Of a stretch of 10,614 nt of DNA, positions 1 through 10,614 are shown piece by piece. The notes under the pieces are model-generated. The model had not been told where the DNA came from. It worked only from the letters and a program-made list of their open reading frames with translations, and ran no database searches. A program made the position numbers and the translations under genes. The stretch's first letter is position 1. The number at the start of each line of letters is the position of its first letter. Source of the stretch: an uncultured Desulfobacterium sp. (GTDB lineage: Bacteria; Desulfobacterota; Desulfobacteria; Desulfobacterales; Desulfobacteraceae); assembly GCA_937124525.1 (NCBI GenBank), contig CAKZLA010000549.1, positions 1-10,614 on the forward strand, read 5' to 3'.

Positions 1-2
1 TG

Positions 3-227
3 CCTGCCATTCTCTGCTCCAACCGGGACAAGGGAAAGGATGTGACCAGTGCATGCGCTGTGGGATGTATGGGTTGCAAGGCATGTGCCAAGGTCTCTGA
101 CATTATTACCATGTCAGGGGATCTGGCCATCCTGGATGCAACGGCCTACACCTACGAAAAGGTGGAAGGCGCAGAAAAAGCCATTGAAAAATGCCCTAAG
201 GATACCATTGCGTTTATTGGTAAATAA
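3..227 (+). CDS. rnfB: RnfB-like electron transport complex subunit, C-terminal fragment
   Basis: Partial gene: the reading frame is open from base 3 and stops with TAA at 225-227, so about 74 C-terminal residues are visible. The segment LCSNRDKGKDV followed by CAVGCMGCKAC matches the ferredoxin-like C-terminal region of RnfB, the iron-sulfur subunit of the membrane Rnf complex that passes electrons between ferredoxin and NAD in a coupled ion pump. Cysteine codons lie at nt 15, 54, 66, 75, 84 and 192. The fourth cysteine of the usual CxxCxxCxxxCP motif is replaced by serine (nt 96). Of the second motif only the final Cys-Pro (nt 192) remains, so the usual two-cluster site looks degenerate. 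The GTG at 42 is internal, not the start. The assignment rests on the motif region only. A related Rnf-like ferredoxin protein is the alternative. Confidence 0.7.
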   Translation, partial: PAILCSNRDKGKDVTSACAVGCMGCKACAKVSDIITMSGDLAILDATAYTYEKVEGAEKAIEKCPKDTIAFIGK

Positions 228-690
228 GGGTTCATCAAGTATATGACCCCAAAAGTAGGTTACAGTCTTTTAGGAACAATCACCTGCAAATGGGGAATGC
301 TCCAAGAAAGTGTAAAGTGCTTTTAACTCTCAGCGATACTTTGAAGTTAACGTAAAAAACGTATGTCATCTTGCCTATGATTAATGCTGATTACCCACAT
401 TTCGCTCATTTTTATAAGATTTTGTAATTACTACATAATATTATCTTAGTTTTTTAATGGCCAACTTTTTGGTATTAATAACTTCAATAAGTTATAAAAA
501 AATAAGCGAATAGAGGGTGATTAAGCTAAGGGAAAATCAATTGGCATACGGGTTTTAAGTCAAAGTGTCGCTGTCGTGCTAATGGGTTCTTAATTTATGT
601 TATTTAGGTTACCGCGGAAAGTTGTTTTGTAATGGCTTGATATCTAAGAATTTATTGGTTCATGCCTCATCATTGTCACCGTTTCATTTG
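228..690. other. AT-rich intergenic region with no recognisable gene
   Basis: This stretch of more than 450 bases between rnfB and the riboswitch promoter has stops in all frames and is clearly more AT-rich than the flanking genes. I see no convincing terminator for rnfB, no tRNA and no ORF with a ribosome binding site. A short segment near 245-275 faintly resembles an IS3-family end, but no partner end or transposase is present. Confidence 0.6.
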
Positions 691-691
691 C

Positions 692-719
692 TTGACAAAA
701 ACACCGGGTGTGGTATTGT
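692..719 (+). promoter_or_regulatory. Sigma-70-type promoter for the riboswitch operon
   Basis: A perfect -35 box TTGACA (692-697) is followed after 16 bases by TATTGT (714-719). TG at 711-712 gives an extended -10 element. Transcription would start near 726, just before the riboswitch aptamer, which supports the call. Confidence 0.65.
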
Positions 720-721
720 TT

Positions 722-900
722 TTGCTGTAAATAATGTCGCTATCCACAGGGAACCCGGTGCAATTCCGGGACGGACCCGCCGCTGTGAGTGAGGACGAAC
801 GCTGCATAAAAGTCACTGTGCTGTGAGTGTAATGATCGAAACAGCATGGGAAGGCGCGGCAAGTAGGAAGAATCACAAGTCAGAATATCTGCTGGAGAAG
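722..900 (+). promoter_or_regulatory. Cobalamin (AdoCbl-type) riboswitch
   Basis: The conserved core is present in order. A GGAA precedes the hairpin CCCGG/CCGGG (754-758 with 766-770) that encloses tgcaatt. The B12 box CCCGCCGCTGTGAG lies at 776-789. A TGCTGT/ACAGCA stem (819-824 with 841-846) is followed by ATGGGAAGG. The 3' conserved block AAGTCAGAATATCTGC lies at 877-892. These match the cobalamin riboswitch consensus. The aptamer sits directly behind a strong promoter and in front of a terminator-like hairpin and the bza-like operon, so it probably reduces expression when cobalamin is abundant. The outer boundaries are approximate because the P1 stem was not resolved. Confidence 0.92.
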
Positions 901-929
901 TGTAAATAGATGGCTTTCGGAGAGATGGT

Positions 930-968
930 AAATCCCCGGGTCGATGAATTGTCGACGTGGGTATTTTT
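930..968 (+). terminator. Riboswitch expression platform: intrinsic-terminator-like hairpin
   Basis: GTCGAT at 940-945 pairs with GTCGAC at 951-956 (one G-U pair). After a small internal loop the stem continues, with 930-937 facing 959-966: CCC/GGG, then an AAAT/ATTT-type extension with one mismatch. The run TATTTTT (962-968) closes the structure. Its position between the aptamer and the first gene suggests transcription attenuation. No antiterminator pairing was worked out, so the switching mechanism is inferred. Confidence 0.6.
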
Positions 969-994
969 GCATGTCGAGCTTAGACGGAGGCCAT

Positions 995-1078
995 ATGAGC
1001 GGGTATCATACCTGTTTGTTTTTTTGTAGTATCTCTTTTAAACATGGACGTACCACCAATCAGGAGGACTGTCTGTGA
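995..1078 (+). CDS. Possible 27-codon leader peptide upstream of bzaC
   Basis: ATG at 995 is preceded by GGAGG (986-990) with 4 bases of spacing. The frame runs 27 codons to TGA at 1076-1078, beginning MSGYHTCLFFC and ending NQEDCL. The TGA overlaps the ATG at 1078 of the methyltransferase gene (TGATG), the usual geometry for translational coupling. The ORF lies after the riboswitch terminator, so it would be translated only on read-through transcripts. No family is recognisable. It could be a chance ORF, because the downstream gene has its own Shine-Dalgarno (1063-1067) inside it. Confidence 0.35.
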   Translation: MSGYHTCLFFCSISFKHGRTTNQEDCL

Positions 1079-2649
1079 TGTCCCCTGATTTTAAAAATGC
1101 AGATCCCACCCACAAAAGTTTCCAGTACCTGGAAGATCTGGCCACGGCATACTGGTATTCTGAAGTACTCTTTGCATCCCTGGAACTGAATTTATTTGAA
1201 CACCTGGACAAGGGCCACAGCTCCCTTACTGGGATTTCCCATGCGGCAGAATGCCATGCCGATGCCCTGTTCCGCCTTTTGAGGGCATTGGAAAAAATGG
1301 CCCTGGTGGCCCGGTATGGGGATGTCTGGTTCAATACATCTGTCTCTTCTTGTTATCTGGTGCCGGGGAAAACCAGCTATATGGGTGATTTTTTCCTCTA
1401 TCGACGCTACATGCAGCCCAACTGGTCACGGCTTGCCCCACGGGTTTCCCGGGAAAAGATTCCGCCCCATGACCAGCCCCGGGAGTCGGATGACTCGATA
1501 CCACCGGACGGTGTTTCACAAGAGGACTACAAGGCAAGAAATCTTCGTTATGTCACGGCCATGGATACCCTGGTAAAAAAAAAAGCCCTGGACATTGCAG
1601 GCATATTAAAGGCCGAACCCCTTAATGGGCCCATTTTGGATGTGGGCGGTGGAGCTGGCAGCATGATCCGGGCACTGGCGCAATTGATACCTGACTGTGC
1701 TGGGGTGTTGTTTGAACTTCCTGAGGTCATCAATGCGGCCCATGTGCTTTATCCAGAAGAATCTTCCTGGAATGGCATTGAAACCATGGAAGGTGATTTC
1801 AGAAGCCACCCCTTTGATCAGAAATTCGGGGTGGTGATGTTGAGTAATTTTCTCCACGCCTATGGGCCGGAGGAAGCCCGGGAATTGCTTGATAAGGCCA
1901 TGTCTCTTCTGGATACCGACGGTGTCATACTGATCCATGACTATTTCCCGGACAGGGCAGGAAAAAATCCTGAAAAAGGCGCTCTTTATGATTTGACCAT
2001 GATGCTTAACACCTACAATGGCTGCTGCCATGAGAGCAAAGATATTGCGCTGTGGCTTAAAGCCCGGGGCATTGAAACATGTGAAGTCATTGACCTTGAA
2101 ACGGATACCTTCCTCATGGTGGCTGGCGGAAGCGGCACTGCCGGATGTCTGGGCAATCGATGGATCAACATTGCCCGGGAACATGGGTTTGAACGTGCCG
2201 TAAAAATATCTCCTGAAACCGTGGTTACGGCTCCATGGGTGCGTAAAAAATGCCAATGGGGGTGTGATGGGTTTGGAAAAAACCTGCAATGCCCACCCCA
2301 GGGCATGTCCCATGAAGAGGCCCGGGAGATGATAGACAGTTATGACACATTGTTATTGCTGGAGGGAACCCCACCGGGAAAGGCCTTTCATAAAAAATTA
2401 TTGGCCCTTGAAAAAACGGCATTTCTGGCGGGATTTCACAAAGCCTTTGTTTTTGGGGCTGGTCCCTGCACTTTGTGCCCCCAGTGTCCCGAAGATGGTA
2501 CCTGCCGTCACCACGACCTGGCACGTCCTGCCATGGAGGCCTCGGGGATTGATGTCTATGAAACCGCAGCCCGGGCCGGGATTTCATTAAAGCCGGTGCA
2601 GGAAAAAATGGACTATGTCAAATACATGGGGCTTTTGCTTCTTAAATAA
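1078..2649 (+). CDS. bzaC: O-methyltransferase fused to a DUF2284 metal-binding domain (BzaC-like)
   Basis: A 523-residue fusion. Residues about 12-110 look like the helical dimerisation domain of family 2 (hydroxyindole/acetylserotonin-type) O-methyltransferases. Residues 184-195 (GPILDVGGGAGS) are the SAM-binding glycine loop, and His260 in SNFLHAYG is a candidate catalytic base. From about residue 355 a DUF2284 domain follows, with Cys392, 396 and 405 (CQWGC, then KNLQCPP) and Cys464, 467, 470 and 476 (GPCTLCPQC, then CRHH). These probably bind an iron-sulfur cluster or other metal. As the first gene under the cobalamin riboswitch, followed by two B12 radical SAM genes, it fits BzaC, which O-methylates 5-hydroxybenzimidazole in anaerobic B12 lower-ligand synthesis. 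That role is inferred from family and gene order. GGAGG at 1063-1067 serves either GTG 1075 (7 bases) or ATG 1078 (10 bases). ATG is chosen because it overlaps the leader ORF stop. An A10 tract (1575-1584) lies within the gene. Confidence 0.72.
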   Translation: MSPDFKNADPTHKSFQYLEDLATAYWYSEVLFASLELNLFEHLDKGHSSLTGISHAAECHADALFRLLRALEKMALVARYGDVWFNTSVSSCYLVPGKTSYMGDFFLYRRYMQPNWSRLAPRVSREKIPPHDQPRESDDSIPPDGVSQEDYKARNLRYVTAMDTLVKKKALDIAGILKAEPLNGPILDVGGGAGSMIRALAQLIPDCAGVLFELPEVINAAHVLYPEESSWNGIETMEGDFRSHPFDQKFGVVMLSNFLHAYGPEEARELLDKAMSLLDTDGVILIHDYFPDRAGKNPEKGALYDLTMMLNTYNGCCHESKDIALWLKARGIETCEVIDLETDTFLMVAGGSGTAGCLGNRWINIAREHGFERAVKISPETVVTAPWVRKKCQWGCDGFGKNLQCPPQGMSHEEAREMIDSYDTLLLLEGTPPGKAFHKKLLALEKTAFLAGFHKAFVFGAGPCTLCPQCPEDGTCRHHDLARPAMEASGIDVYETAARAGISLKPVQEKMDYVKYMGLLLLK

Positions 2650-2672
2650 TTGAATTGTATATGGAGTTTATA

Positions 2673-4016
2673 ATGAATATTTTACTTGTACAGGTTCCCA
2701 CATCCCATTTGGGGGCCGGAGAAAAGGTCTACCCCTTGGGCCTTTCCCGGTTATCCAGCACGGTGCCGGACAGCGTGGAAAAAAAGGTGCTGGATATGAA
2801 TGTCTGCCCGGACCCATGGCTGGAACTTAACAAGGCTCTGACACAGCAAAAGCCAGATGTGGTGGCCCTTTCTTTTCGAAACCTTGATCCCCTGGCAGGT
2901 CACCAGGTCTCTTACCTGTCGTCCTTGAAAACAGCGGCCCTGGTGGTAAAAACAGTGGTTCCTAAGGCAAGACTTATGGCAGGTGGCCCTGCTTTTTCCC
3001 TTTTTGCCCAACGCCTAATGGAAGAGGTGCCCCAGCTTGATGTGGGGCTCAAGGGAGAGGGGGAACTGATTTTTCCCTCTCTTTTGCAAGCTGACCCTGA
3101 TTACCGGAGCATCCCCGGTATACTCTGGCGGGACCGGGGAGAGGTGGTTTTAAATCCCCCGGGATCCAGAATCGATATGGACACCATCCCCCCCATGGAT
3201 CTTGCTGCCTTTCCTCCCCTGGACTACACCCGGGGCAATGCCTATGTGGCTGCCATGGGCATTGAAGGAAAAAGGGGGTGTGACCTCTGGTGCGGTTACT
3301 GCCTTTATCCCTTTCTGGGGGGTAATACCATGCGCCTTCGAAGTCCTGTGAAAATTGTGGATGAGATGGAGTTGCTCCATAAAGATGCGGGTATCAAACT
3401 TTTTCATTTCACAGATGGTGTGCTTAACCGTCCTGCAGATCATTTTGAAGACCTGTGCCGGGAACTGATTCGCCGTGATCTGGATATTTCCTGGACCGGG
3501 TTTTTCCGGGAGGATTCTTTGACCCTGGAAAACCTTGATTTGGCAAAAAAGGCCGGTGTGGTGGCGGTGTATTTTTCCGGGGATGCCCTCACCGATTATG
3601 GATTAAAGTTATTGAATAAAAAAATGACCCGGGAAGATATTCTCAAGGCCTCCCGGTTGACGGCGGAAAAAGAGGTGCTCACCATGTGCCATTTTCTGGT
3701 GAATCTGCCGGGAGAGACAGATGACCATGTGGCAGAGGCCCGGGAAATGCTGGATGAACTCCTTGCCATCCATGACGCTGCCGGCAATCTGGGGGCCGTG
3801 ATTTTTAATCATATACGGCTTTACCCCGGTGCCCCCATTACCGGGAAATTGATCCGTGACGGCCTGTTGGACCCGGGAACGGATTTACTCTATCCCGTAT
3901 ACCATAACCCCATCCAGGGCAGCCATCTGCTCCATGAATTTGAAGCCCGGTGCCATAGCGCCGGTGTTTTTTCCCGTCTGAAACTGGACCAACATCTCCT
4001 GGAGGTTGCAAAATGA
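2673..4016 (+). CDS. bzaD: B12-binding radical SAM protein (BzaD-like)
   Basis: A 447-residue protein. The N-terminal part (about 1-150) has the Rossmann-like pattern of cobalamin-binding domains in class B radical SAM methylases (NILLVQVPTSHLGAGEKVYPLGLS, shortened: NILLVQVP, then PLGLS; later LMAGGPAF and GLKGEGELIFPSLL). The DxHxxG cobalamin-ligand motif is absent, as is usual for this class. The radical SAM core carries Cys203, 207 and 210 (GCDLWCGYC), which would hold the [4Fe-4S] cluster. It is the second of three co-directional genes under the cobalamin riboswitch. By order it corresponds to BzaD, which methylates C6 of 5-methoxybenzimidazole; this is inference from context. The start at ATG 2673 is preferred over TTG 2655 and ATG 2661 because GGAG (2663-2666) lies 6 bases upstream. 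Its stop overlaps the next start by 4 bases (ATGA), implying translational coupling. Confidence 0.7.
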   Translation: MNILLVQVPTSHLGAGEKVYPLGLSRLSSTVPDSVEKKVLDMNVCPDPWLELNKALTQQKPDVVALSFRNLDPLAGHQVSYLSSLKTAALVVKTVVPKARLMAGGPAFSLFAQRLMEEVPQLDVGLKGEGELIFPSLLQADPDYRSIPGILWRDRGEVVLNPPGSRIDMDTIPPMDLAAFPPLDYTRGNAYVAAMGIEGKRGCDLWCGYCLYPFLGGNTMRLRSPVKIVDEMELLHKDAGIKLFHFTDGVLNRPADHFEDLCRELIRRDLDISWTGFFREDSLTLENLDLAKKAGVVAVYFSGDALTDYGLKLLNKKMTREDILKASRLTAEKEVLTMCHFLVNLPGETDDHVAEAREMLDELLAIHDAAGNLGAVIFNHIRLYPGAPITGKLIRDGLLDPGTDLLYPVYHNPIQGSHLLHEFEARCHSAGVFSRLKLDQHLLEVAK

Positions 4017-5497
4017 AAGTAGTTGTGCTGGAGCATCCCCGGATGCCTTCAATAAAAAGATTCAATGACATTGCCAATACCCCGTTGTGGTCCTGTCTCA
4101 TGGGGGGATATGCCGCAGCGGCACTGGACTCTGCCGGGTTTGAAACTCGATTCATGGACGCTGCCCAGGGCTTTTGGGGTTTCCATGAGACCAAAGAGAA
4201 GATTCTCAACGCAGACCCTTCTTTGCTGTGCATCAATGCCGTGTACTTCTGGGAACATACCATTTCGTTTTTTGAGTTTCTGGATGATTTGAAAACAGAG
4301 GGCTTTACCGGCCATATTAATCTATTTGGTTTTTTTCCCACTCTTGTGTATGGTGAAATTCTGGAAAATTGGCAGTCTGTGGATTCCGTGGCCGTGGGTG
4401 AGTTTGAACATACCCTGGTGGACCTGGCAAAGAGCCTTGAACAGGGACAACCCTTCCAGAAGATTGAAGGATTGGCATTCCGGGGGAATAGCTCGGTGGG
4501 TAAAACACCGGTGCGGCGGCCGGGAAAAAATCCCGATGATTTTTCCTTTCCCTGGCGCTCATCCCTGGAAGGAACGGTGACGGTGCTGGCCAGCCGGGGC
4601 TGTTACAACCATTGCAGTTTCTGCCCGGTACCCTCCTTTTACAACCAGGGGCCTTTGTGGCGGGGCCGAACCCCGGAAAACATTGCTCTGGAGATGGCCC
4701 AACTGGTTAAAAAAGGGGTGAAAAATTTTTACTTTGCAGACCCCAATTTCATTGGCCCCGGCCGCCAGGGTAAAAAAAGGGTGCTGGAGCTGTTGCAGCT
4801 CATTGAGCCGTTGAACATTGTCTTTGGCATGGAAACACGACCGGCAGATCTGGATGATGAAATTCTGGAAAAATTGACGGCTGCAGGGTTTAATTCCCTT
4901 CTCATGGGCATTGAAAGCGGATCTGAAAAGGTTCTTGGTAATTTGAACAAGCGCTCTGCGGCCCAGGAAGGAGCCGGGGCCATTGCCCTTTGCCGGGCCC
5001 ATGGCATTGAACCGGAGATCGGTTTCCTCATGTTTGTGCCGGACAGTTCCGTGGCGGATCTCAGGGCCAACATGGCCTTTCTCATGGAAAATAACCTTCT
5101 GGACCACCTGGAACGCACCGCCAACCTCATGTGTCATTGCCAGATTGTCCTTGCCGGTACTTCTGGGTATGCGGCCTTTGAACAGATGAATCGCCTGAAA
5201 AAAAGCGGGCTTTTCGGGATTGAAGGGGAGGTGACCTTTCTGGACCCCGGTGTGGAGTGGATGTCCCGGCGGGTGGTGTTTGCCTGCCACACCGTTTTAA
5301 GGGCCATGTCAGATGAAACTTCCCCCCTTTACTGGGATATGCCGGATATTGCCGTGTCAAAAAAAGTTAATGATTATTTGGTGAATCTTTTTTTCAGGCT
5401 GCTGGAGCAGGTGGAGGCCCGGGGACCCGAAGAGAATCTGGTTGCTATGGAAAAAGAAATTTTCCAGGAAATTTCAGTGCTCCTGGAATCTGTTTGA
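4013..5497 (+). CDS. bzaE: B12-binding radical SAM protein (BzaE-like)
   Basis: A 494-residue protein. The N-terminal region (about 1-150) resembles a cobalamin-binding domain, with GFFPTLVYGEIL and VDSVAVGEFEHT in the places where related proteins show GGxFPT and the GExE element. The radical SAM cluster ligands are Cys197, 201 and 204 (RGCYNHCSFCPVP). MGIESGSEKVL, about a hundred residues further on, is a typical later core motif. GGAGG at 4001-4005 is 7 bases from the ATG, and the gene overlaps the preceding stop by 4 bases. As the last gene of the riboswitch operon it matches BzaE, which converts 5-methoxy-6-methylbenzimidazole to 5,6-dimethylbenzimidazole. The enzyme class is well supported. 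The exact substrate, and which of the two radical SAM proteins does which step, are inferred from gene order. Confidence 0.7.
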   Translation: MKVVVLEHPRMPSIKRFNDIANTPLWSCLMGGYAAAALDSAGFETRFMDAAQGFWGFHETKEKILNADPSLLCINAVYFWEHTISFFEFLDDLKTEGFTGHINLFGFFPTLVYGEILENWQSVDSVAVGEFEHTLVDLAKSLEQGQPFQKIEGLAFRGNSSVGKTPVRRPGKNPDDFSFPWRSSLEGTVTVLASRGCYNHCSFCPVPSFYNQGPLWRGRTPENIALEMAQLVKKGVKNFYFADPNFIGPGRQGKKRVLELLQLIEPLNIVFGMETRPADLDDEILEKLTAAGFNSLLMGIESGSEKVLGNLNKRSAAQEGAGAIALCRAHGIEPEIGFLMFVPDSSVADLRANMAFLMENNLLDHLERTANLMCHCQIVLAGTSGYAAFEQMNRLKKSGLFGIEGEVTFLDPGVEWMSRRVVFACHTVLRAMSDETSPLYWDMPDIAVSKKVNDYLVNLFFRLLEQVEARGPEENLVAMEKEIFQEISVLLESV

Positions 5498-5520
5498 AAA
5501 ACTGGGTTTGCTCACAACAT

Positions 5521-5543
5521 GGGGCAGAAATAGATTCTGCCCC
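5521..5543 (+). terminator. GC-rich hairpin, probable terminator of the bza-like operon
   Basis: A perfect 9-bp inverted repeat GGGGCAGAA/TTCTGCCCC surrounds a 5-base loop (ATAGA), 24 bases after the bzaE-like stop. The following bases are only moderately T-rich (ctacgttcttaattctt), so termination may be weak. The form also resembles short dispersed hairpin repeats found in some bacterial genomes, an alternative reading. Confidence 0.5.
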
Positions 5544-5709
5544 CTACGTTCTTAATTCTTGTATTGCACCTTGGCTTGCCGGGATTTTCTTATAAAAGCA
5601 AATGCTTGCCGGCACAACGAATAATGAAAAAGCGATTTTGAGATACCGTGCGGGCTTGGATTCCCAAAAACCCATTAAGCGCTTTTTTACATAAAAGGAG
5701 CTGATTCTG

Positions 5710-6309
5710 ATGTTATCCTGTGAGATCCATTGCCATGAACTGCTTAGTCGTGCCGTCCATAAAGCCACCCATCCCCTTGCCCCGGACGCGGCTCTATTTC
5801 AGCCCACCAGTGTGATGGCCTTGGCTGGCGCTCATCCCGAACCTTTTTTGCTCTTGATCCAGAAGGCCGACCGCCCGGGATATCCCTGGCGCAATCAGAT
5901 GGCCTTCCCCGGTGGCCATGTGGACCCAGAGGACGCAAATCGGGAGGATACGGCCCTGCGTGAGCTTGACGAAGAGATGGCTATCCCCCGGGAACAGGTG
6001 ATGGTGGTGGGTTCTCTGGGCCATTTTCAGACAATAAACAACAGAGATATCGAAGCATTTCTGGGAATATGGGACCAAATGGGAGATATCGATTTTGATA
6101 AAAATGAAATTTCCAGGGTTTTCAGGATTCCATTACACCATTTTATCCAGATCCACAGGGATAAAAAATTCCATGGCAGGTACCCGGATATCCAGGAATT
6201 GACCTACCCCTATAAGGATGTGGTGGTGTGGGGTGTTACGGCAAAAATTATTCATCACCTCATGGAAATCCTGCCAGAGAAACTCAACGATTCCAACCTT
6301 CTTACATGA
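5710..6309 (+). CDS. Nudix hydrolase, CoA pyrophosphatase (NudL) type
   Basis: A 199-residue protein that likely cleaves the pyrophosphate bond of coenzyme A or a related nucleotide. LLLIQKADRPGYPWRNQMAFPGG matches in style the CoA-pyrophosphatase signature ending in FPGG (key part: YPWRNQMAFPGG). The Nudix box follows as GGHVDPEDANREDTALRELD and then EEMAIP, with spacing like E. coli NudL and the metal-binding RExxEE glutamates intact. GGAG at 5697-5700 lies 9 bases before the ATG, and AAGGAG is complete at 5695-5700. It stands alone, separated from the bza-like operon by a hairpin and about 210 bases, and from nrdD by 434 bases. No functional link to either neighbour is evident. CoA as the substrate is inferred from the family. 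Confidence 0.82.
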   Translation: MLSCEIHCHELLSRAVHKATHPLAPDAALFQPTSVMALAGAHPEPFLLLIQKADRPGYPWRNQMAFPGGHVDPEDANREDTALRELDEEMAIPREQVMVVGSLGHFQTINNRDIEAFLGIWDQMGDIDFDKNEISRVFRIPLHHFIQIHRDKKFHGRYPDIQELTYPYKDVVVWGVTAKIIHHLMEILPEKLNDSNLLT

Positions 6310-6588
6310 CCCGGGCCTGTCTTTTAATCACCAAATCACTCACATTACTTACCCCCCGCAGAAAAACCATGGGACTTATCTGTCATCGCATCCTTTGTTG
6401 CAGGGGAAACGACACCCCCACCCCCTCTCCATCCTATAAAATTCCATTAAAACAGATATCAAATACAGGAAAACTCCCTTGGAAAATGAGTTTGCCACGG
6501 GTGTGGGATATTCATTTATTTTGAGTTCCATTTTGGGCTTTTATCTCTATGTTTTCAAGTTGTTGTCTGATTCGTTTTTTTGCAAAAA

Positions 6589-6604
6589 ATACAATATGTC
6601 GTTT
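6589..6604 (+). promoter_or_regulatory. NrdR-box-like site 1
   Basis: ATACAATATGTCGTTT agrees with the 16-base NrdR consensus ACACWATATATWGTGT at 12 positions. It lies just upstream of the -35 box of the putative nrdD promoter. NrdR is an ATP-cone repressor of ribonucleotide reductase genes that normally binds paired boxes. Confidence 0.5.
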
Positions 6605-6610
6605 TATTCC

Positions 6611-6639
6611 TTGACTTAAATCTATATATTGATTATTTT
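6611..6639 (+). promoter_or_regulatory. Putative nrdD promoter
   Basis: TTGACT (6611-6616) is followed after 17 bases by TATTTT (6634-6639). The -35 is good and the -10 is weak (4 of 6). NrdR-like box 2 fills the spacer, so bound repressor would block polymerase. The start of transcription would be near 6646, leaving a leader of about 100 bases. Confidence 0.5.
6619..6634 (+). promoter_or_regulatory. NrdR-box-like site 2
   Basis: AATCTATATATTGATT agrees with the NrdR consensus at 12 of 16 positions, including the whole central WATATATWG. It starts 30 bases after box 1, close to three helical turns and to the spacing usual for NrdR box pairs. It sits between the -35 and -10 of the nrdD promoter. 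Confidence 0.55.
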
Positions 6640-6743
6640 TGCACCCTCTGGTATTCTACTTATCAAATGACGAACCTCCAGTACAATGATTCAAAAATAG
6701 CCAAAATTTATATAAAAATGCAGGAAATCCAAGGGAGCGGTGA

Positions 6744-8867
6744 ATGTTTGAAAAAATAAAAAAACGTGATGGCAGGATTGCGGAATTTGATTCATCTAAA
6801 ATTAGTGATGCCATAGCCAAGTCAGGTAAAGAAACAGGCGAATTTGATGTAAAAGAAGCCAAAAAACTGACAATGAAGGTCATCACCCTTGCCAGGGATT
6901 TACGTCTGGGGGTTTGTCCCGAGGTGGAAGAGATCCAGGACATTGTGGAGCGGGTTCTCCTTGATTCTCCCTTTTACAAAACAGCCAAAGCTTACATTAT
7001 TTATCGGGAACAACACAACCAGATTAGAAAGATTACCATCCGTGAACACCTGGATCTCATGGAGAGTTATATTAGCCGCATGGATTGGAAGGTAAAGGAG
7101 AACAGCAATATGAGCTATTCTCTCCAGGGACTCAATAATTACATCTCATCGGACATAACGGCAGAATACTGGCTTAATCGCATCTATCCGCCCAGTGTGA
7201 GGGAAGCCCATGAGCGGGGGGATCTGCACATCCATGACTTGAGCCTTTTGTCTGTGTATTGTGTGGGCTGGGATCTCCAGGACCTTCTCATGGAAGGGTT
7301 CAAAGGGGTATCTGGCAAGGTGGAAAGCGCGCCTCCCAAGCATTTTAGAACCGCCCTGGGCCAGATGGTAAATTTTTTCTACACCCTCCAGGGAGAGGCG
7401 GCCGGGGCCCAGGCCATGTCCAATTTTGATACTTTGCTGGCCCCCTTTGTCCGGGAAGACAAGCTTGGCTACAAAGAGGTGAAGCAGGCCCTGCAGGAGT
7501 TTGTGTTCAATATCAATATTCCCACCAGGGTGGGGTTCCAGACCCCCTTTACCAACATTACCATGGACCTTGTGGTGCCCACCATTCTTAGGGATTCTCC
7601 GGTGGTGATTGGGGGTGAATATCAGCAGGAAACCTATGCAGACTACCAGCATGAAATGGATATTATCAATAACGCCTTTGCCGAGGTGATGATGGAGGGC
7701 GATGCCAAGGGCCGGGTGTTCACCTTTCCCATCCCCACCTATAATATCACCAAGGATTTTAACTGGGACAATGAAAATCTTGAAAATGTATGGAAGATGA
7801 CCGGTAAATACGGCATTCCCTATTTTTCTAATTTTGTGAATTCAGACATGTCCCCTGATGATGCCCGTTCCATGTGCTGTCGGCTTCGACTGGATAATCG
7901 GGAATTACAAAAACGGGGGGGAGGCCTTTTTGGTGCCAATCCCCTCACCGGTTCCATTGGGGTTGTCACCATTAATTTACCCCGGCTGGGATATATTTCT
8001 CAAACCGAGCAAGAGTTCATGGATAACCTGGATGAGTTGACTAAAATTGCCGGGGAATCCTTGAGCATCAAGCGAAAGGTGCTGGAACGATTCACCGACG
8101 GCAATCTTTATCCCTATTCAAAATTTTATTTGAGAAAGATCAAAGAGAGTGCCGGATGCTTCTGGCGAAACCATTTTTCCACCATTGGTGTGCTGGGCAT
8201 GAACGAGGCCTGCGTTAATTTCATGGGTAAGGGCATTGCTTCAAAAGAAGGACAGGCTTTTTCCATCCGGGTCATGGACCATCTCCGGAGCAAGATTGAA
8301 AAAATGCAGGTGGAGACTGGTGAAATGTTTAACCTGGAAGCCACCCCTGCAGAGGGAACCACCTACCGGTTTGCCATGAAGGACAAGGAGCGATATCCTG
8401 AAATTCTCTGCGCCAATGAGGCAGAATACAAGGCGGGCAGCAATCCCTTTTACACCAACTCCACCCATCTGCCGGTGAACTACACCGATGACGTGTTTGA
8501 GGTGCTGGACCTCCAGGATGGGCTCCAGGTCAAATACACCGGTGGCACGGTGCTTCATCTGTTTCTGGGGGAAGAGGTGTGTGATATTGAGGTTGTCAAG
8601 CAGATGGTCCGTAAGGTGTCCAACAATTATAAGCTGCCTTATTTTACCTTAACCCCCACCTTCAGTGTCTGTGCCTCCCATGGATACCTTTCCGGGGAGG
8701 AGCCCGTGTGCCATAAGTGCGGCGCGGAAACGGAAGTGTATTCCCGGGTGGTGGGATATCTTCGGCCGGTGAAGCAGTGGAACAACGGCAAGCAGACCGA
8801 GTTCTGCATGCGCAAAACCTTTAAAGTGGCTTCCTGCACGGAAAAAAAATTTAAAGCTGCCTCTTGA
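6744..8867 (+). CDS. nrdD: Anaerobic (class III) ribonucleoside-triphosphate reductase
   Basis: A 707-residue glycyl radical enzyme that reduces ribonucleotides to deoxyribonucleotides in the absence of oxygen. Residues 1-95 form an ATP-cone, the allosteric nucleotide-sensing domain. HDLSLLSVYCVGWDL places Cys173 where the active-site cysteine paired with the thiyl residue lies in T4 NrdD. MCCRLRLDN carries Cys378/379, the candidate thiyl radical position, and STIGVLGMNEAC gives Glu488. The C-terminus has a zinc-binding element (Cys643, His646, Cys656, Cys659) and the radical glycine Gly671 in RVVGYL, followed by WNNGKQTEF. All key elements are intact and the length is normal for the family. 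GGGAG (6733-6737) is 6 bases upstream of the ATG. nrdG follows after 9 bases. NrdR-like boxes upstream suggest repression when dNTP supply is ample. Confidence 0.95.
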   Translation: MFEKIKKRDGRIAEFDSSKISDAIAKSGKETGEFDVKEAKKLTMKVITLARDLRLGVCPEVEEIQDIVERVLLDSPFYKTAKAYIIYREQHNQIRKITIREHLDLMESYISRMDWKVKENSNMSYSLQGLNNYISSDITAEYWLNRIYPPSVREAHERGDLHIHDLSLLSVYCVGWDLQDLLMEGFKGVSGKVESAPPKHFRTALGQMVNFFYTLQGEAAGAQAMSNFDTLLAPFVREDKLGYKEVKQALQEFVFNINIPTRVGFQTPFTNITMDLVVPTILRDSPVVIGGEYQQETYADYQHEMDIINNAFAEVMMEGDAKGRVFTFPIPTYNITKDFNWDNENLENVWKMTGKYGIPYFSNFVNSDMSPDDARSMCCRLRLDNRELQKRGGGLFGANPLTGSIGVVTINLPRLGYISQTEQEFMDNLDELTKIAGESLSIKRKVLERFTDGNLYPYSKFYLRKIKESAGCFWRNHFSTIGVLGMNEACVNFMGKGIASKEGQAFSIRVMDHLRSKIEKMQVETGEMFNLEATPAEGTTYRFAMKDKERYPEILCANEAEYKAGSNPFYTNSTHLPVNYTDDVFEVLDLQDGLQVKYTGGTVLHLFLGEEVCDIEVVKQMVRKVSNNYKLPYFTLTPTFSVCASHGYLSGEEPVCHKCGAETEVYSRVVGYLRPVKQWNNGKQTEFCMRKTFKVASCTEKKFKAAS

Positions 8868-8876
8868 GGTGAATAA

Positions 8877-9245
8877 ATGTCAATGATTTTGGGGGGGCTT
8901 CAAAAAAACAGCCTCATTGATTTTCCGGGGACTGTGGCATGTGTGGCCTTTACATCGGGGTGTAATTTTAATTGTCCCTACTGCCATAACCCTGACCTTG
9001 CAAAGGGGGGTGTTTCAGATGCCGATGCCGCTATTTCACAGACGGAATTCTTTACTTTTCTGGAAAAACGAAAAGGGCTTCTGGATGGTGTGGTTATTAC
9101 CGGTGGAGAACCCACCCTTCAGAAAGATCTTGAAGGATTCTGTGTCACAATCAGGCAGATGGGATACCAGATCAAGCTGGACACCAACGGCAGCCATCCC
9201 CGGGTGGTGGCACGTTTGCTTGAACAGCAACTGGTTGATTTGTAA
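8877..9245 (+). CDS. nrdG: Anaerobic ribonucleotide reductase activating protein, truncated
   Basis: Radical SAM activase that would generate the glycyl radical on NrdD Gly671. Residues GGLQKNSLIDFPG and the cluster motif CNFNCPYC (Cys29, 33 and 36), then VVITGGEPTL, are characteristic of the NrdG family. The frame stops at residue 122 (TAA 9243-9245), just after LLEQQLVDL, where family members continue with a segment like YIAMDIKAP. Roughly 70-110 C-terminal residues appear to be missing, and no continuation is found in other frames downstream. GAGGTG (8866-8871) overlaps the nrdD stop and serves the ATG. A protein lacking the later strands of the barrel is unlikely to work, so this is a broken copy or the product of a mis-joined sequence. 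Confidence 0.85.
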   Translation: MSMILGGLQKNSLIDFPGTVACVAFTSGCNFNCPYCHNPDLAKGGVSDADAAISQTEFFTFLEKRKGLLDGVVITGGEPTLQKDLEGFCVTIRQMGYQIKLDTNGSHPRVVARLLEQQLVDL

Positions 9246-9246
9246 T
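9238..9246. other. Junction between nrdG and unrelated, virus-like sequence
   Basis: NrdG similarity ends around base 9239-9242. From 9245 the sequence encodes proteins unrelated to the upstream chromosome, and the CCCGGG word that recurs through the upstream genes is not seen again. No insertion-sequence end or tRNA is visible at the break. A prophage or other insertion, a deletion, or an assembly chimera would all explain it. Confidence 0.6.
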
Positions 9247-9886
9247 GTTTAGTGAACTGGTCGATCGTGCAGTACACACCGCAGGTCGGCCAGACCACGT
9301 TGAAGACTTTGCCTATTTCGCCAATGAAATTATGCGCGACGTAAGCAAGCGCTCTGATTGGGACGATGATACGATTGAGGAAGAAATCGTAATCCCAATT
9401 GGGGAGAACAGCGTGGTTTGGCAGCCCGAAGTGGGGCGCTCTCGGTTTCGTCGCGAAGAATACCTATGCGACGCTTGCGGGTGCGAACCGTTGCGGGTAC
9501 GCCCTTCGGGACGGATGAAGAAGACAAGTGGGCCTTTCTACTACCGGTCTGGCGGAGATTTTGTATTTGCGCAAGCTTGCAGTCCTGTTAAAATCTTCTA
9601 CTACGCCTATCAGCCGTGGTTGAAGTACTACCCCAAGAACGAGCGCCCCGCCGAGTTTGACGTAGAGGCGAACGACTGGCCTCTGGGTACGGCAGAAGCA
9701 ACGGTCGCACTGGTGTCTAACTGGATGTTGGAGCGACATAATCAAACGGTCTTGGCAGGAACGCTCGCACGTTTCTTTTCGGCAAAACAAGACCCAAGAC
9801 AACAAGTGCACTATTCTTCGTATGAGCAGGGAATTAAACACCTTGTCTCCGGAGAGAGTGCACGAGAGTTGATTGCCCGTCGTTAA
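9245..9886 (+). CDS. Putative phage structural protein, family not recognised
   Basis: A 213-residue protein starting MFSELVDRAVHTAGRPDHVEDFAYFANEIMRD (written in part: SELVDRAVHTAGRPD). The N-terminal pattern, a short helix with 'LVDRxxxxxGRPD' followed by an acidic stretch, and the later aromatic FYYRSGGDFVFA and FYYAYQPWLKYYP resemble small virion proteins I have seen beside tail and head genes. That is only an impression. Cys-Asp-Ala-Cys-Gly-Cys near the middle may bind metal. The ATG overlaps the nrdG TAA, and no Shine-Dalgarno precedes it, as if the native upstream sequence had been lost at the junction. An upstream start on the original molecule cannot be excluded. No signal peptide or membrane segment is visible. 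Confidence 0.5.
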   Translation: MFSELVDRAVHTAGRPDHVEDFAYFANEIMRDVSKRSDWDDDTIEEEIVIPIGENSVVWQPEVGRSRFRREEYLCDACGCEPLRVRPSGRMKKTSGPFYYRSGGDFVFAQACSPVKIFYYAYQPWLKYYPKNERPAEFDVEANDWPLGTAEATVALVSNWMLERHNQTVLAGTLARFFSAKQDPRQQVHYSSYEQGIKHLVSGESARELIARR

Positions 9887-9901
9887 GACGCGGTGATCAT
9901 T

Positions 9902-9938
9902 GTGGGCGGTTTGTGCTGCGGGGTCGCAGATCGCCCAC
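9902..9938 (+). other. Two-part hairpin between the virus-like genes
   Basis: GTGGGCG (9902-9908) pairs with CGCCCAC (9932-9938). Inside it CTGCG (9916-9920) pairs with CGCAG (9925-9929) around a GGGT loop, with an asymmetric internal loop between. No T-run follows, so it is not a standard terminator. It ends 5 bases before the GGAGGG (9944-9949) of the next gene and may affect its translation or processing. Confidence 0.5.
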
Positions 9939-9953
9939 GCCATGGAGGGTAAG

Positions 9954-10614
9954 ATGGAATTACAAACGTATCAGATCGGACCCTACTTGCCGGCCTTTTC
10001 TCCTGAACAGCAGGTTAAAGCTGGCCAAGGACAATTAGCCGTGCAAGACGGTGAGAATTTTATTTGGAATGCCCGCGGGGTACAAAGCGCATTCGGTGAG
10101 TGGGACAGATGCACCGGCGCTCCGGCACCCAGCCGTCACCCAAGCGTACAGTGGCTGAAGAACGAAGCATACCATTTCATGCTGGATGGTGTGTACCAGT
10201 GCGACCCCGCGGGCGGGTGGGAGTTAGTCTTCCCCTACGAGCGCACATGCCAACATGCAGTGTACGATCATACGCTGTATAAGTGGACTTACGCCTACGT
10301 GGGTACGCGGCATTGGTTTTCACAGCCCGAAGTGCCTTATCTCGTTTGGTACGATGAACACCAAGATGAATGGGGAACATATCGCGACGATTGCTGGAAC
10401 GGGTGTATCTATGGCATAACCCATGCGGATAATCGGTTGGTCGTTTTGCTGGAAGACACGGTCGTTTGGTCACAATTCGACTACGGCGACCTGACGAAGT
10501 GCGATTGGTTTACCGGAGCAGGGGCGCAAAGTTTGGCGCTTGTTCGCTACGGGCAGCCCTACACGGTGATGCCCTATCATAACGGCTGGCTCACTTTCAC
10601 GTCCATGGGCGTAA
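9954..10614 (+). CDS. Putative phage virion protein, N-terminal part (runs off the window)
   Basis: An open frame of at least 220 codons with no stop before the window ends. It begins MELQTYQIGPYLPAF. GGAGGG (9944-9949) lies 4 bases before the ATG. The early segment 'AVQDGENFIWNARGVQSAFG' resembles the opening of phage virion proteins that list residues after a bound-value segment. The rest is rich in Trp, Tyr and Gly-Trp pairs at intervals, suggesting a beta-rich, perhaps propeller-like, fold. No catalytic motif or signal peptide is seen. It follows the preceding virus-like gene on the same strand after 67 bases, so the two are probably co-transcribed. The phage assignment is inference from style and company only. 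Confidence 0.55.
   Translation, partial: MELQTYQIGPYLPAFSPEQQVKAGQGQLAVQDGENFIWNARGVQSAFGEWDRCTGAPAPSRHPSVQWLKNEAYHFMLDGVYQCDPAGGWELVFPYERTCQHAVYDHTLYKWTYAYVGTRHWFSQPEVPYLVWYDEHQDEWGTYRDDCWNGCIYGITHADNRLVVLLEDTVVWSQFDYGDLTKCDWFTGAGAQSLALVRYGQPYTVMPYHNGWLTFTSMGV

What the first reader, a model, noticed from the sequence alone, without database searches (positions are those of the whole stretch)
692..5497. Riboswitch-controlled bzaCDE-like operon lacking the ring-forming enzyme
A cobalamin riboswitch is followed by an O-methyltransferase and two B12-binding radical SAM proteins, the same order as bzaC-bzaD-bzaE in the known anaerobic pathway to 5,6-dimethylbenzimidazole. The hydroxybenzimidazole synthase (BzaA/BzaB or BzaF) and CobT are not adjacent: rnfB lies upstream and a Nudix gene downstream. 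This suggests a split pathway, uptake of 5-hydroxybenzimidazole from other cells, or methylation of a different substrate. Two of the enzymes would need cobalamin to make cobalamin, making riboswitch feedback notable.
Basis: partly seen in the sequence, partly recalled or inferred. Interest (0 to 1): 0.75.

Follow-up and report, generated by a model that had tools for sequence, protein, structure and literature searches.

The report
Vitamin B12 side-ring operon, split version
This stretch carries the finishing half of the oxygen-free route to the vitamin B12 base dimethylbenzimidazole, switched by a B12-sensing RNA; in the nearest relative the starting half sits elsewhere under a second such switch, so it is a real but rearranged version of a known pathway.

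Summary
In detail: a cobalamin riboswitch (708-910) precedes bzaC (1075-2649), bzaD (about 2673-4016) and bzaE (4013-5497). The window's own genome is not held, but 677-9243 is collinear with Desulfocicer vacuolatum at 81-86% DNA identity. That genome carries riboswitch-bzaF-cobT at another locus, so the pathway is split over two riboswitch-controlled loci. Of 86 family genomes, 20 have BzaD; 17 of these also have BzaF, shown unlinked in 16. BzaD and BzaE trees put the window in a starred set of 21 rows that holds none of the 12 intact operons. BluB is over cut-off in 0 of 22 bzaCDE genomes. A different substrate is unlikely; base salvage is not needed, though four draft bzaCDE genomes showed no BzaF. 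In passing: in 8 of 16 unlinked loci an uncharacterised Na+/solute symporter lies between riboswitch and bzaC; in three other genomes it follows a cobalamin riboswitch without bzaCDE. It may import benzimidazoles. The window lacks it. BzaC carries a DUF2284 domain with six invariant cysteines.

The parts
692..719 (+). sigma-70-like promoter (TTGACA, 16 nt, TATTGT)
   Evidence: 10 of 12 consensus positions; 4 promoter-like sites in the region against 1.1 expected, so weak on its own; same boxes in D. vacuolatum
708..910 (+). cobalamin riboswitch aptamer (RF00174)
   Evidence: 82.7 bits, gathering score 31.5; aligned in L022 and L013
995..1019 (+). intrinsic terminator-like hairpin followed by a T run; probable expression platform
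   Evidence: 11 pairs, 3 of them G-C; 2 such sites found, 0.4 expected; in the fold (z -3.3); hairpin and T run also in L022, hairpin not aligned in L013
1057..1090 (+). predicted hairpin covering the Shine-Dalgarno (GGAGG about 1063) and the bzaC start
   Evidence: prediction only; limits approximate
1075..2649 (+). bzaC: COMT-type O-methyltransferase fused to C-terminal DUF2284 (524 aa)
   Evidence: same fusion in Desulfosporosinus
2206..2643 (+). DUF2284 domain of bzaC; six cysteines invariant in 35 of 35 aligned BzaC
2673..4016 (+). bzaD: B12-binding radical SAM protein (CDLWCGYC)
   Evidence: the mechanical ORF starts at TTG 2655
4013..5497 (+). bzaE: radical SAM enzyme of B12-dependent type (CYNHCSFC), overlapping bzaD by 4 bases

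Best explanation
The locus is the tailoring half of the anaerobic 5,6-dimethylbenzimidazole pathway in a Desulfocicer-like sulfate reducer. BzaF makes 5-hydroxybenzimidazole and CobT attaches the ribose phosphate, both from a second riboswitch-controlled locus elsewhere in the genome (gene order shown in D. vacuolatum, inferred for the window's organism). BzaC then O-methylates, and BzaD and BzaE, radical SAM enzymes of the cobalamin-dependent type, complete dimethylbenzimidazole (roles inferred from the characterised pathway). When cobalamin is plentiful the riboswitch should stop bzaCDE expression through a terminator and/or by hiding the ribosome site (inferred). In the clade that holds the window the two halves lie apart. 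A symporter gene that many relatives keep between riboswitch and bzaC is absent here, most simply by loss.
For: Riboswitch and gene order. TIGR04385 is the best NCBIfam match of P2, 408 bits against 220 for the next; in 86 family genomes full-length BzaD hits score 680-836 bits and the next protein 184. D. vacuolatum: riboswitch 8194-8387, bzaF 8477-9790, cobT 10081-11145 in L062, and separately riboswitch 7957-8169 then bzaCDE in L022; that CobT is over the NCBIfam cut-off (431.8 against 319.3). Collinearity of window 677-9243 with L022. BzaF profile hits (778.5-884 bits) stand clear of ThiC-class hits (428.5-507) and occur in 40 of 86 family genomes, 17 of them among the 20 with BzaD. Intact operons in 12 of 41 loci; 16 of 41 have at least 2.5 kb before bzaC without bzaF; 13 are cut too short to tell. 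On one 5,589,073-base contig (G089), apparently a whole chromosome, riboswitch-bzaF-cobT lies at about 0.76 Mb and riboswitch-symporter-bzaCDE at about 1.80 Mb, so the split is no assembly artefact. BzaD and BzaE separate at 100/100 and the window pairs with L022. BluB over cut-off in 0 of 22 bzaCDE genomes.
Against: The window's own genome is not held, so its bzaF and cobT were not seen. BzaD misses the TIGR04385 cut-off (408 against 450), as do the intact-operon BzaD of L017, L018 and L023 (389-418). The curated BzaB model gives D. vacuolatum BzaF 502 bits, below its cut-off 700, and two ThiC models score it over theirs, so its identity as BzaF rests on operon context and a profile built here. 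Three of 20 BzaD genomes of the family showed no BzaF (G005, G008, G033), nor did G295 outside it. In a 17th (G026) the contig ends just after bzaF, so it may be an intact operon broken by assembly. Six of the 16 unlinked loci had no riboswitch in reach (L003, L010, L014, L024, L029, L040). The tree has no outgroup and no characterised Eubacterium or Moorella sequence, and no BzaC tree was built. No enzyme activity was tested.
Confidence: 0.88

Rival explanations
1. Salvage: the organism lacks BzaF, imports 5-hydroxybenzimidazole (or a relative) made by neighbours, and uses BzaCDE to upgrade it to dimethylbenzimidazole.
For: No bzaF in the window; 3 of 20 BzaD genomes of the family and G295 outside it showed no BzaF; 23 of 86 genomes have BzaF without BzaD and could be donors; a riboswitch-linked symporter accompanies bzaCDE in many relatives.
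Against: The nearest relative has bzaF-cobT. The exceptions are drafts. In G005 most of the bzaF neighbourhood has no DNA match although the far end of the same stretch matches at 83-90% (only 40 of 146 candidate matches were scored, so this is not proof). G008 and G033 and G295 have no ThiC-family hit at all. The window and D. vacuolatum have no symporter.
Confidence: 0.07
2. The three enzymes methylate another substrate (natural product or tetrapyrrole) and only resemble BzaCDE.
For: Weak similarity to BchE, HpnJ and anthracycline-type O-methyltransferases; BzaD below the curated cut-off; no curated model names BzaE or BzaC in the library as matched.
Against: TIGR04385 exceeds the next model by nearly 190 bits; BzaD and BzaE group with their namesakes; orthologues lie directly behind bzaF-cobT in intact operons; a cobalamin riboswitch precedes them; hydroxyindole O-methyltransferase is the best solved relative of BzaC by sequence.
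Confidence: 0.03

Closest known systems
[quoted passage not shown]
   Same: bzaC-bzaD-bzaE order; predicted product dimethylbenzimidazole
   Different: Here bzaCDE stand alone behind their own riboswitch; ring formation and CobT are at another locus in the nearest relative; a single BzaF-type enzyme replaces BzaA/BzaB
bzaF and cobT of Geobacter sulfurreducens (PMC8123684, PMC7726332, passages read)
   Same: BzaF-type protein with cobT in D. vacuolatum
   Different: Geobacter makes the 5-hydroxybenzimidazolyl cobamide; this lineage adds bzaCDE
Intact riboswitch-bzaF-cobT-bzaC-bzaD-bzaE operons L017, L018, L021, L023, L027, L030
   Same: Orthologous proteins and the same kind of riboswitch
   Different: One operon instead of two loci

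Membership tests
Cobalamin riboswitch RF00174 | covariance-model score over gathering threshold | tested here: met
   82.7 bits against 31.5, full length
BzaD (TIGR04385) | score over the curated cut-off | tested here: not met
   408 against 450; of eight others tested, L036 (790) and L037 (583) pass, L022, L023, L017, L018, L097, L033 (389-418) do not, three of these being from intact operons. A threshold of the model, not a biochemical trait
BzaD (TIGR04385) | groups with BzaD of intact bza operons, apart from BzaE | tested here: met
   39 BzaD against 37 BzaE, split supported 100/100; no outgroup; length and score filters dropped partial genes
BzaD and BzaE, radical SAM enzymes | CxxxCxxC cluster motif | tested here: met
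   CDLWCGYC and CYNHCSFC
BzaE | fold of a cobalamin-binding domain plus radical SAM domain | tested here: met
   model pLDDT 89.5; best matches OxsB, then AprD4, TsrM, TokK, MgmA, CysS. AprD4 is a diol dehydratase by its title, so the fold does not prove cobalamin binding; PF02310 not matched in the window protein
BzaC | O-methyltransferase directly before bzaD-bzaE, homologous over its length to the one in intact operons | tested here: met
   no BzaC tree was built
BzaC | methylates 5-hydroxybenzimidazole or its ribotide | not testable with these tools
   needs an enzyme assay
Complete anaerobic dimethylbenzimidazole pathway in the window's organism | bzaF or bzaAB and cobT in the genome | tested here: inconclusive
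   own genome not held; present in D. vacuolatum
Complete anaerobic dimethylbenzimidazole pathway in the window's organism | cobalamin is the cobamide made | not testable with these tools
   needs corrinoid extraction

The most novel reading that the evidence does not exclude
When bzaCDE were parted from bzaF in Desulfobacterales they travelled with a dedicated cobalamin-riboswitch-controlled Na+ symporter that imports free benzimidazoles (or another B12 precursor). These cells would then both make dimethylbenzimidazole de novo and upgrade scavenged 5-hydroxybenzimidazole from the many relatives that have BzaF but no BzaD; the Desulfocicer lineage of the window has lost the importer and kept only synthesis.
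Probability: 0.28. Interest if true: 0.65.

Novelty: new variant of a known kind. Interest (0 to 1): 0.42.

Why it matters
It shows that an operon which ends in cobalamin can look incomplete without meaning auxotrophy or a new pathway, and that cobamide types predicted from neighbouring genes alone will miss split pathways. It also points to a testable candidate for the uptake of free benzimidazole bases, the symporter that shares the riboswitch in relatives, and to a six-cysteine DUF2284 domain carried by BzaC whose role is unexplained.

Tried and rejected
Different-substrate reading: rejected on grouping and operon context. Auxotrophy from absence of bzaF in G005: I lean to an assembly gap, because most of the stretch around bzaF-cobT of its relative G007, including a gene that reads by eye as asparaginyl-tRNA synthetase, has no DNA match there while the end of the stretch matches at 83-90%; only 40 of 146 candidates were scored. 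Outside the family, G022 (1.6 Mb) and G029 (2.2 Mb) showed one full PF01964 hit each; which class these are was not resolved. Symporter remnant in the window: none (best E 0.26 among the rows printed). Phage origin of 9244-10614: no PHROGs match better than E 0.16 for two ORFs; for the second ORF alone, no match in phage records and no relative in viral contigs. Fold of the DUF2284 part: the second-look rows only covered residues 6-353, so nothing is said about it. Substrate of the symporter from solved relatives: only distant matches named as glucose, choline and iodide cotransporters or a putative symporter, not informative.

Papers. Passages read: PMC6461909, PMC8123684, PMC10553843, PMC7726332, PMC4230183; a word search of PMC10468695 gave no passage. 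The rest were seen only as search listings; two searches listed none. Hazra 2015 (PNAS) and Mathur 2020 (JBC) are not held; that CobT acts before BzaC rests on the Mathur title in a reference list and on recall. Not finding the split operon or the symporter in print rests on these searches alone.
Full report
What is there. The window holds a cobalamin riboswitch at 708-910 behind a sigma-70-like promoter (692-719). It is followed by an O-methyltransferase fused to DUF2284 (1075-2649), a B12-binding radical SAM protein (best start 2673, end 4016) and a second radical SAM protein (4013-5497). The leader downstream of the aptamer carries a terminator-like hairpin at 995-1019 and a predicted hairpin over the Shine-Dalgarno. 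Promoter boxes, aptamer and terminator recur in D. vacuolatum.

Which organism. The own genome is not held. The nearest named relative is Desulfocicer vacuolatum DSM 3385 (L022, 87% for BzaD). Window 677-9243 is collinear with it in four blocks at 81-86% DNA identity, and the upstream rnfB-like end (3-227) matches D. vacuolatum at 86% on another contig. So 1-9243 reads as one Desulfocicer-like genome whose upstream neighbour differs from that of D. vacuolatum.

Where the missing enzymes are. In D. vacuolatum a second locus reads riboswitch (8194-8387), bzaF (8477-9790), cobT (10081-11145) in L062. The CobT is over the curated cut-off. The BzaF-like protein scores 502 against the BzaB model (cut-off 700) and passes two ThiC cut-offs, so I rely on context and on a profile of 16 such proteins, 15 of which lie beside cobT and/or bzaC (the 16th, L079, does not). 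With that profile the 86 genomes of the family show two score classes: 778.5-884 bits (40 genomes) and 428.5-507 bits for the ThiC class; fragments score 233-349. BzaD occurs in 20 of 86 (680-836 bits, fragments 332 and 385 in G036; next protein 184). Seventeen of these 20 have BzaF. In 16 of the 17 the sequence after bzaF (4 kb or more, or a megabase in G089) has no bzaCDE, so the two are unlinked. In G026 the contig ends right after bzaF and bzaC is cut at the start of its own contig, so that genome may have an intact operon. The three without BzaF are G005, G008 and G033. In G005 most of the neighbourhood is also unmatched (partial scoring); G008 and G033 have no ThiC-family hit at all. Outside the family, G295 has bzaCDE but no BzaF or ThiC hit. 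CobT is over cut-off in 20 of 22 bzaCDE genomes examined. BluB, the oxygen-dependent alternative, is over cut-off in none of the 22, although all 22 have weak matches to it of at most 81.5 bits.

Intact and split forms. Of 41 loci found with the BzaD alignment, 12 carry bzaF or bzaAB upstream of bzaCDE in the same stretch (L015, L017, L018, L020, L021, L023, L027, L030, L032, L036, L037, L039); 16 have at least 2.5 kb before bzaC and no bzaF; 13 are too short to tell. In the intact set a riboswitch precedes bzaF or bzaAB in 10 of 12; in L020 and L032 bzaF is cut by the contig end, and L032 was not scanned. In the split set 10 of 16 have a riboswitch before bzaC or before symporter-bzaC; L003, L010, L014, L024, L029 and L040 do not. 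A tree of 39 BzaD and 37 BzaE (partial genes dropped by length and score filters) separates the two proteins at 100/100. The window pairs with L022, and in each half a starred set of 21 rows (100/99 and 99/98) holds the window and none of the 12 intact operons. L014, L024 and L029 are unlinked too but lie outside that set in the BzaD half, so the separation happened more than once or those loci are otherwise rearranged. The tree has no outgroup and no characterised Eubacterium or Moorella sequence; Desulfosporosinus (bzaAB type, L036) stands in for them.

The symporter. In L001, L002, L004, L006, L011, L012, L033 and L034, that is 8 of the 16 unlinked loci and 8 of the 10 with a riboswitch, and in L097, a Na+/solute symporter of about 520-665 aa lies between riboswitch and bzaC (PF00474 tested on L033 and L012 only; the others align with them at 70-77% to L033). 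In the family it occurs in 11 of 86 genomes. Nine are next to bzaC (in G008 the contig ends inside it, so its riboswitch cannot be tested). G057 has riboswitch-bzaF-cobT, a further ORF, then a second riboswitch and the symporter. G056 has riboswitch-symporter alone. In 389 genomes drawn from the class it was found in 17. G139 has riboswitch-symporter alone, with BzaF elsewhere and no BzaD hit. G295 has riboswitch-bzaC-bzaD-bzaE-symporter, a different order with the same company. Against: five genomes (G331, G263, G336, G311, G356) have a similar symporter without a riboswitch, beside a gene that reads by eye as another transporter, and their scores overlap those of G139 and G295; all five have BzaF but no BzaD hit. 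Independent support: 20 of 89 distinct BzaD contig lengths of 5 kb or more recur among 82 symporter contig lengths, against a mean of 0.2 (maximum 2) when lengths are shifted (from the 120 best rows listed of each search, searches used for the symporter; lengths are each cluster's longest contig). The window, L022 and L013 lack the symporter between riboswitch and bzaC, and the G001 and G013 genomes show none at E 1e-60. Since symporter-bearing loci fall on both sides of them in both halves of the tree, loss is simpler than several gains, but this was not tested formally.

G089 is very probably Desulforapulum autotrophicum HRM2: its contig C1 and a contig named for that species have the same length, 5,589,073.

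DUF2284. In 35 of 35 aligned BzaC (rows of my choosing) the domain keeps C393, C397, C406, C465, C468 and C471 (window numbering), and C477 in 34 of 35, suggesting a metal or iron-sulfur site. The fusion also occurs in Desulfosporosinus and the Nitrospirae loci L037 and L039, so it is not peculiar to the window. A word search found DUF2284 in two held papers, seen as listings only.

Odds.

Verdict. A genuine bzaCDE operon in a split arrangement; a new variant as far as the held literature goes, moderate in interest. The associated symporter is the most testable novelty, but it is not in this window.

Noticed in passing
L001 6860-8422, L033 6910-8469, L097 7240-9207, L125 (after bzaE), L093 14360-15934, L094 5022-6680: An uncharacterised Na+/solute symporter repeatedly sits behind a cobalamin riboswitch, often between it and bzaC; candidate importer of benzimidazoles or another B12 precursor.
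   Followed up: partly
window 9244-10614: Homology to D. vacuolatum stops abruptly inside nrdG (122 aa here, 240 aa in L022); the rest looks phage-like by eye but matched nothing searched. Insertion or assembly chimera.
   Followed up: partly
window 2206-2643: DUF2284 domain with six invariant cysteines fused to BzaC, also in Desulfosporosinus and Nitrospirae loci.
   Followed up: partly
G001 C47:250077-251078 and others: Many bzaCDE genomes have a second CobT match in a longer open frame (about 640-753 aa) besides the bzaF-linked CobT.
   Followed up: no
L004 and L006, symporter C-terminus: A C-terminal extension of roughly 100 residues on the symporter in these two Desulfobacterium MAGs.
   Followed up: no
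L020 5982-6180: A cobalamin riboswitch lies downstream of bzaE; what it controls was not looked at.
   Followed up: no
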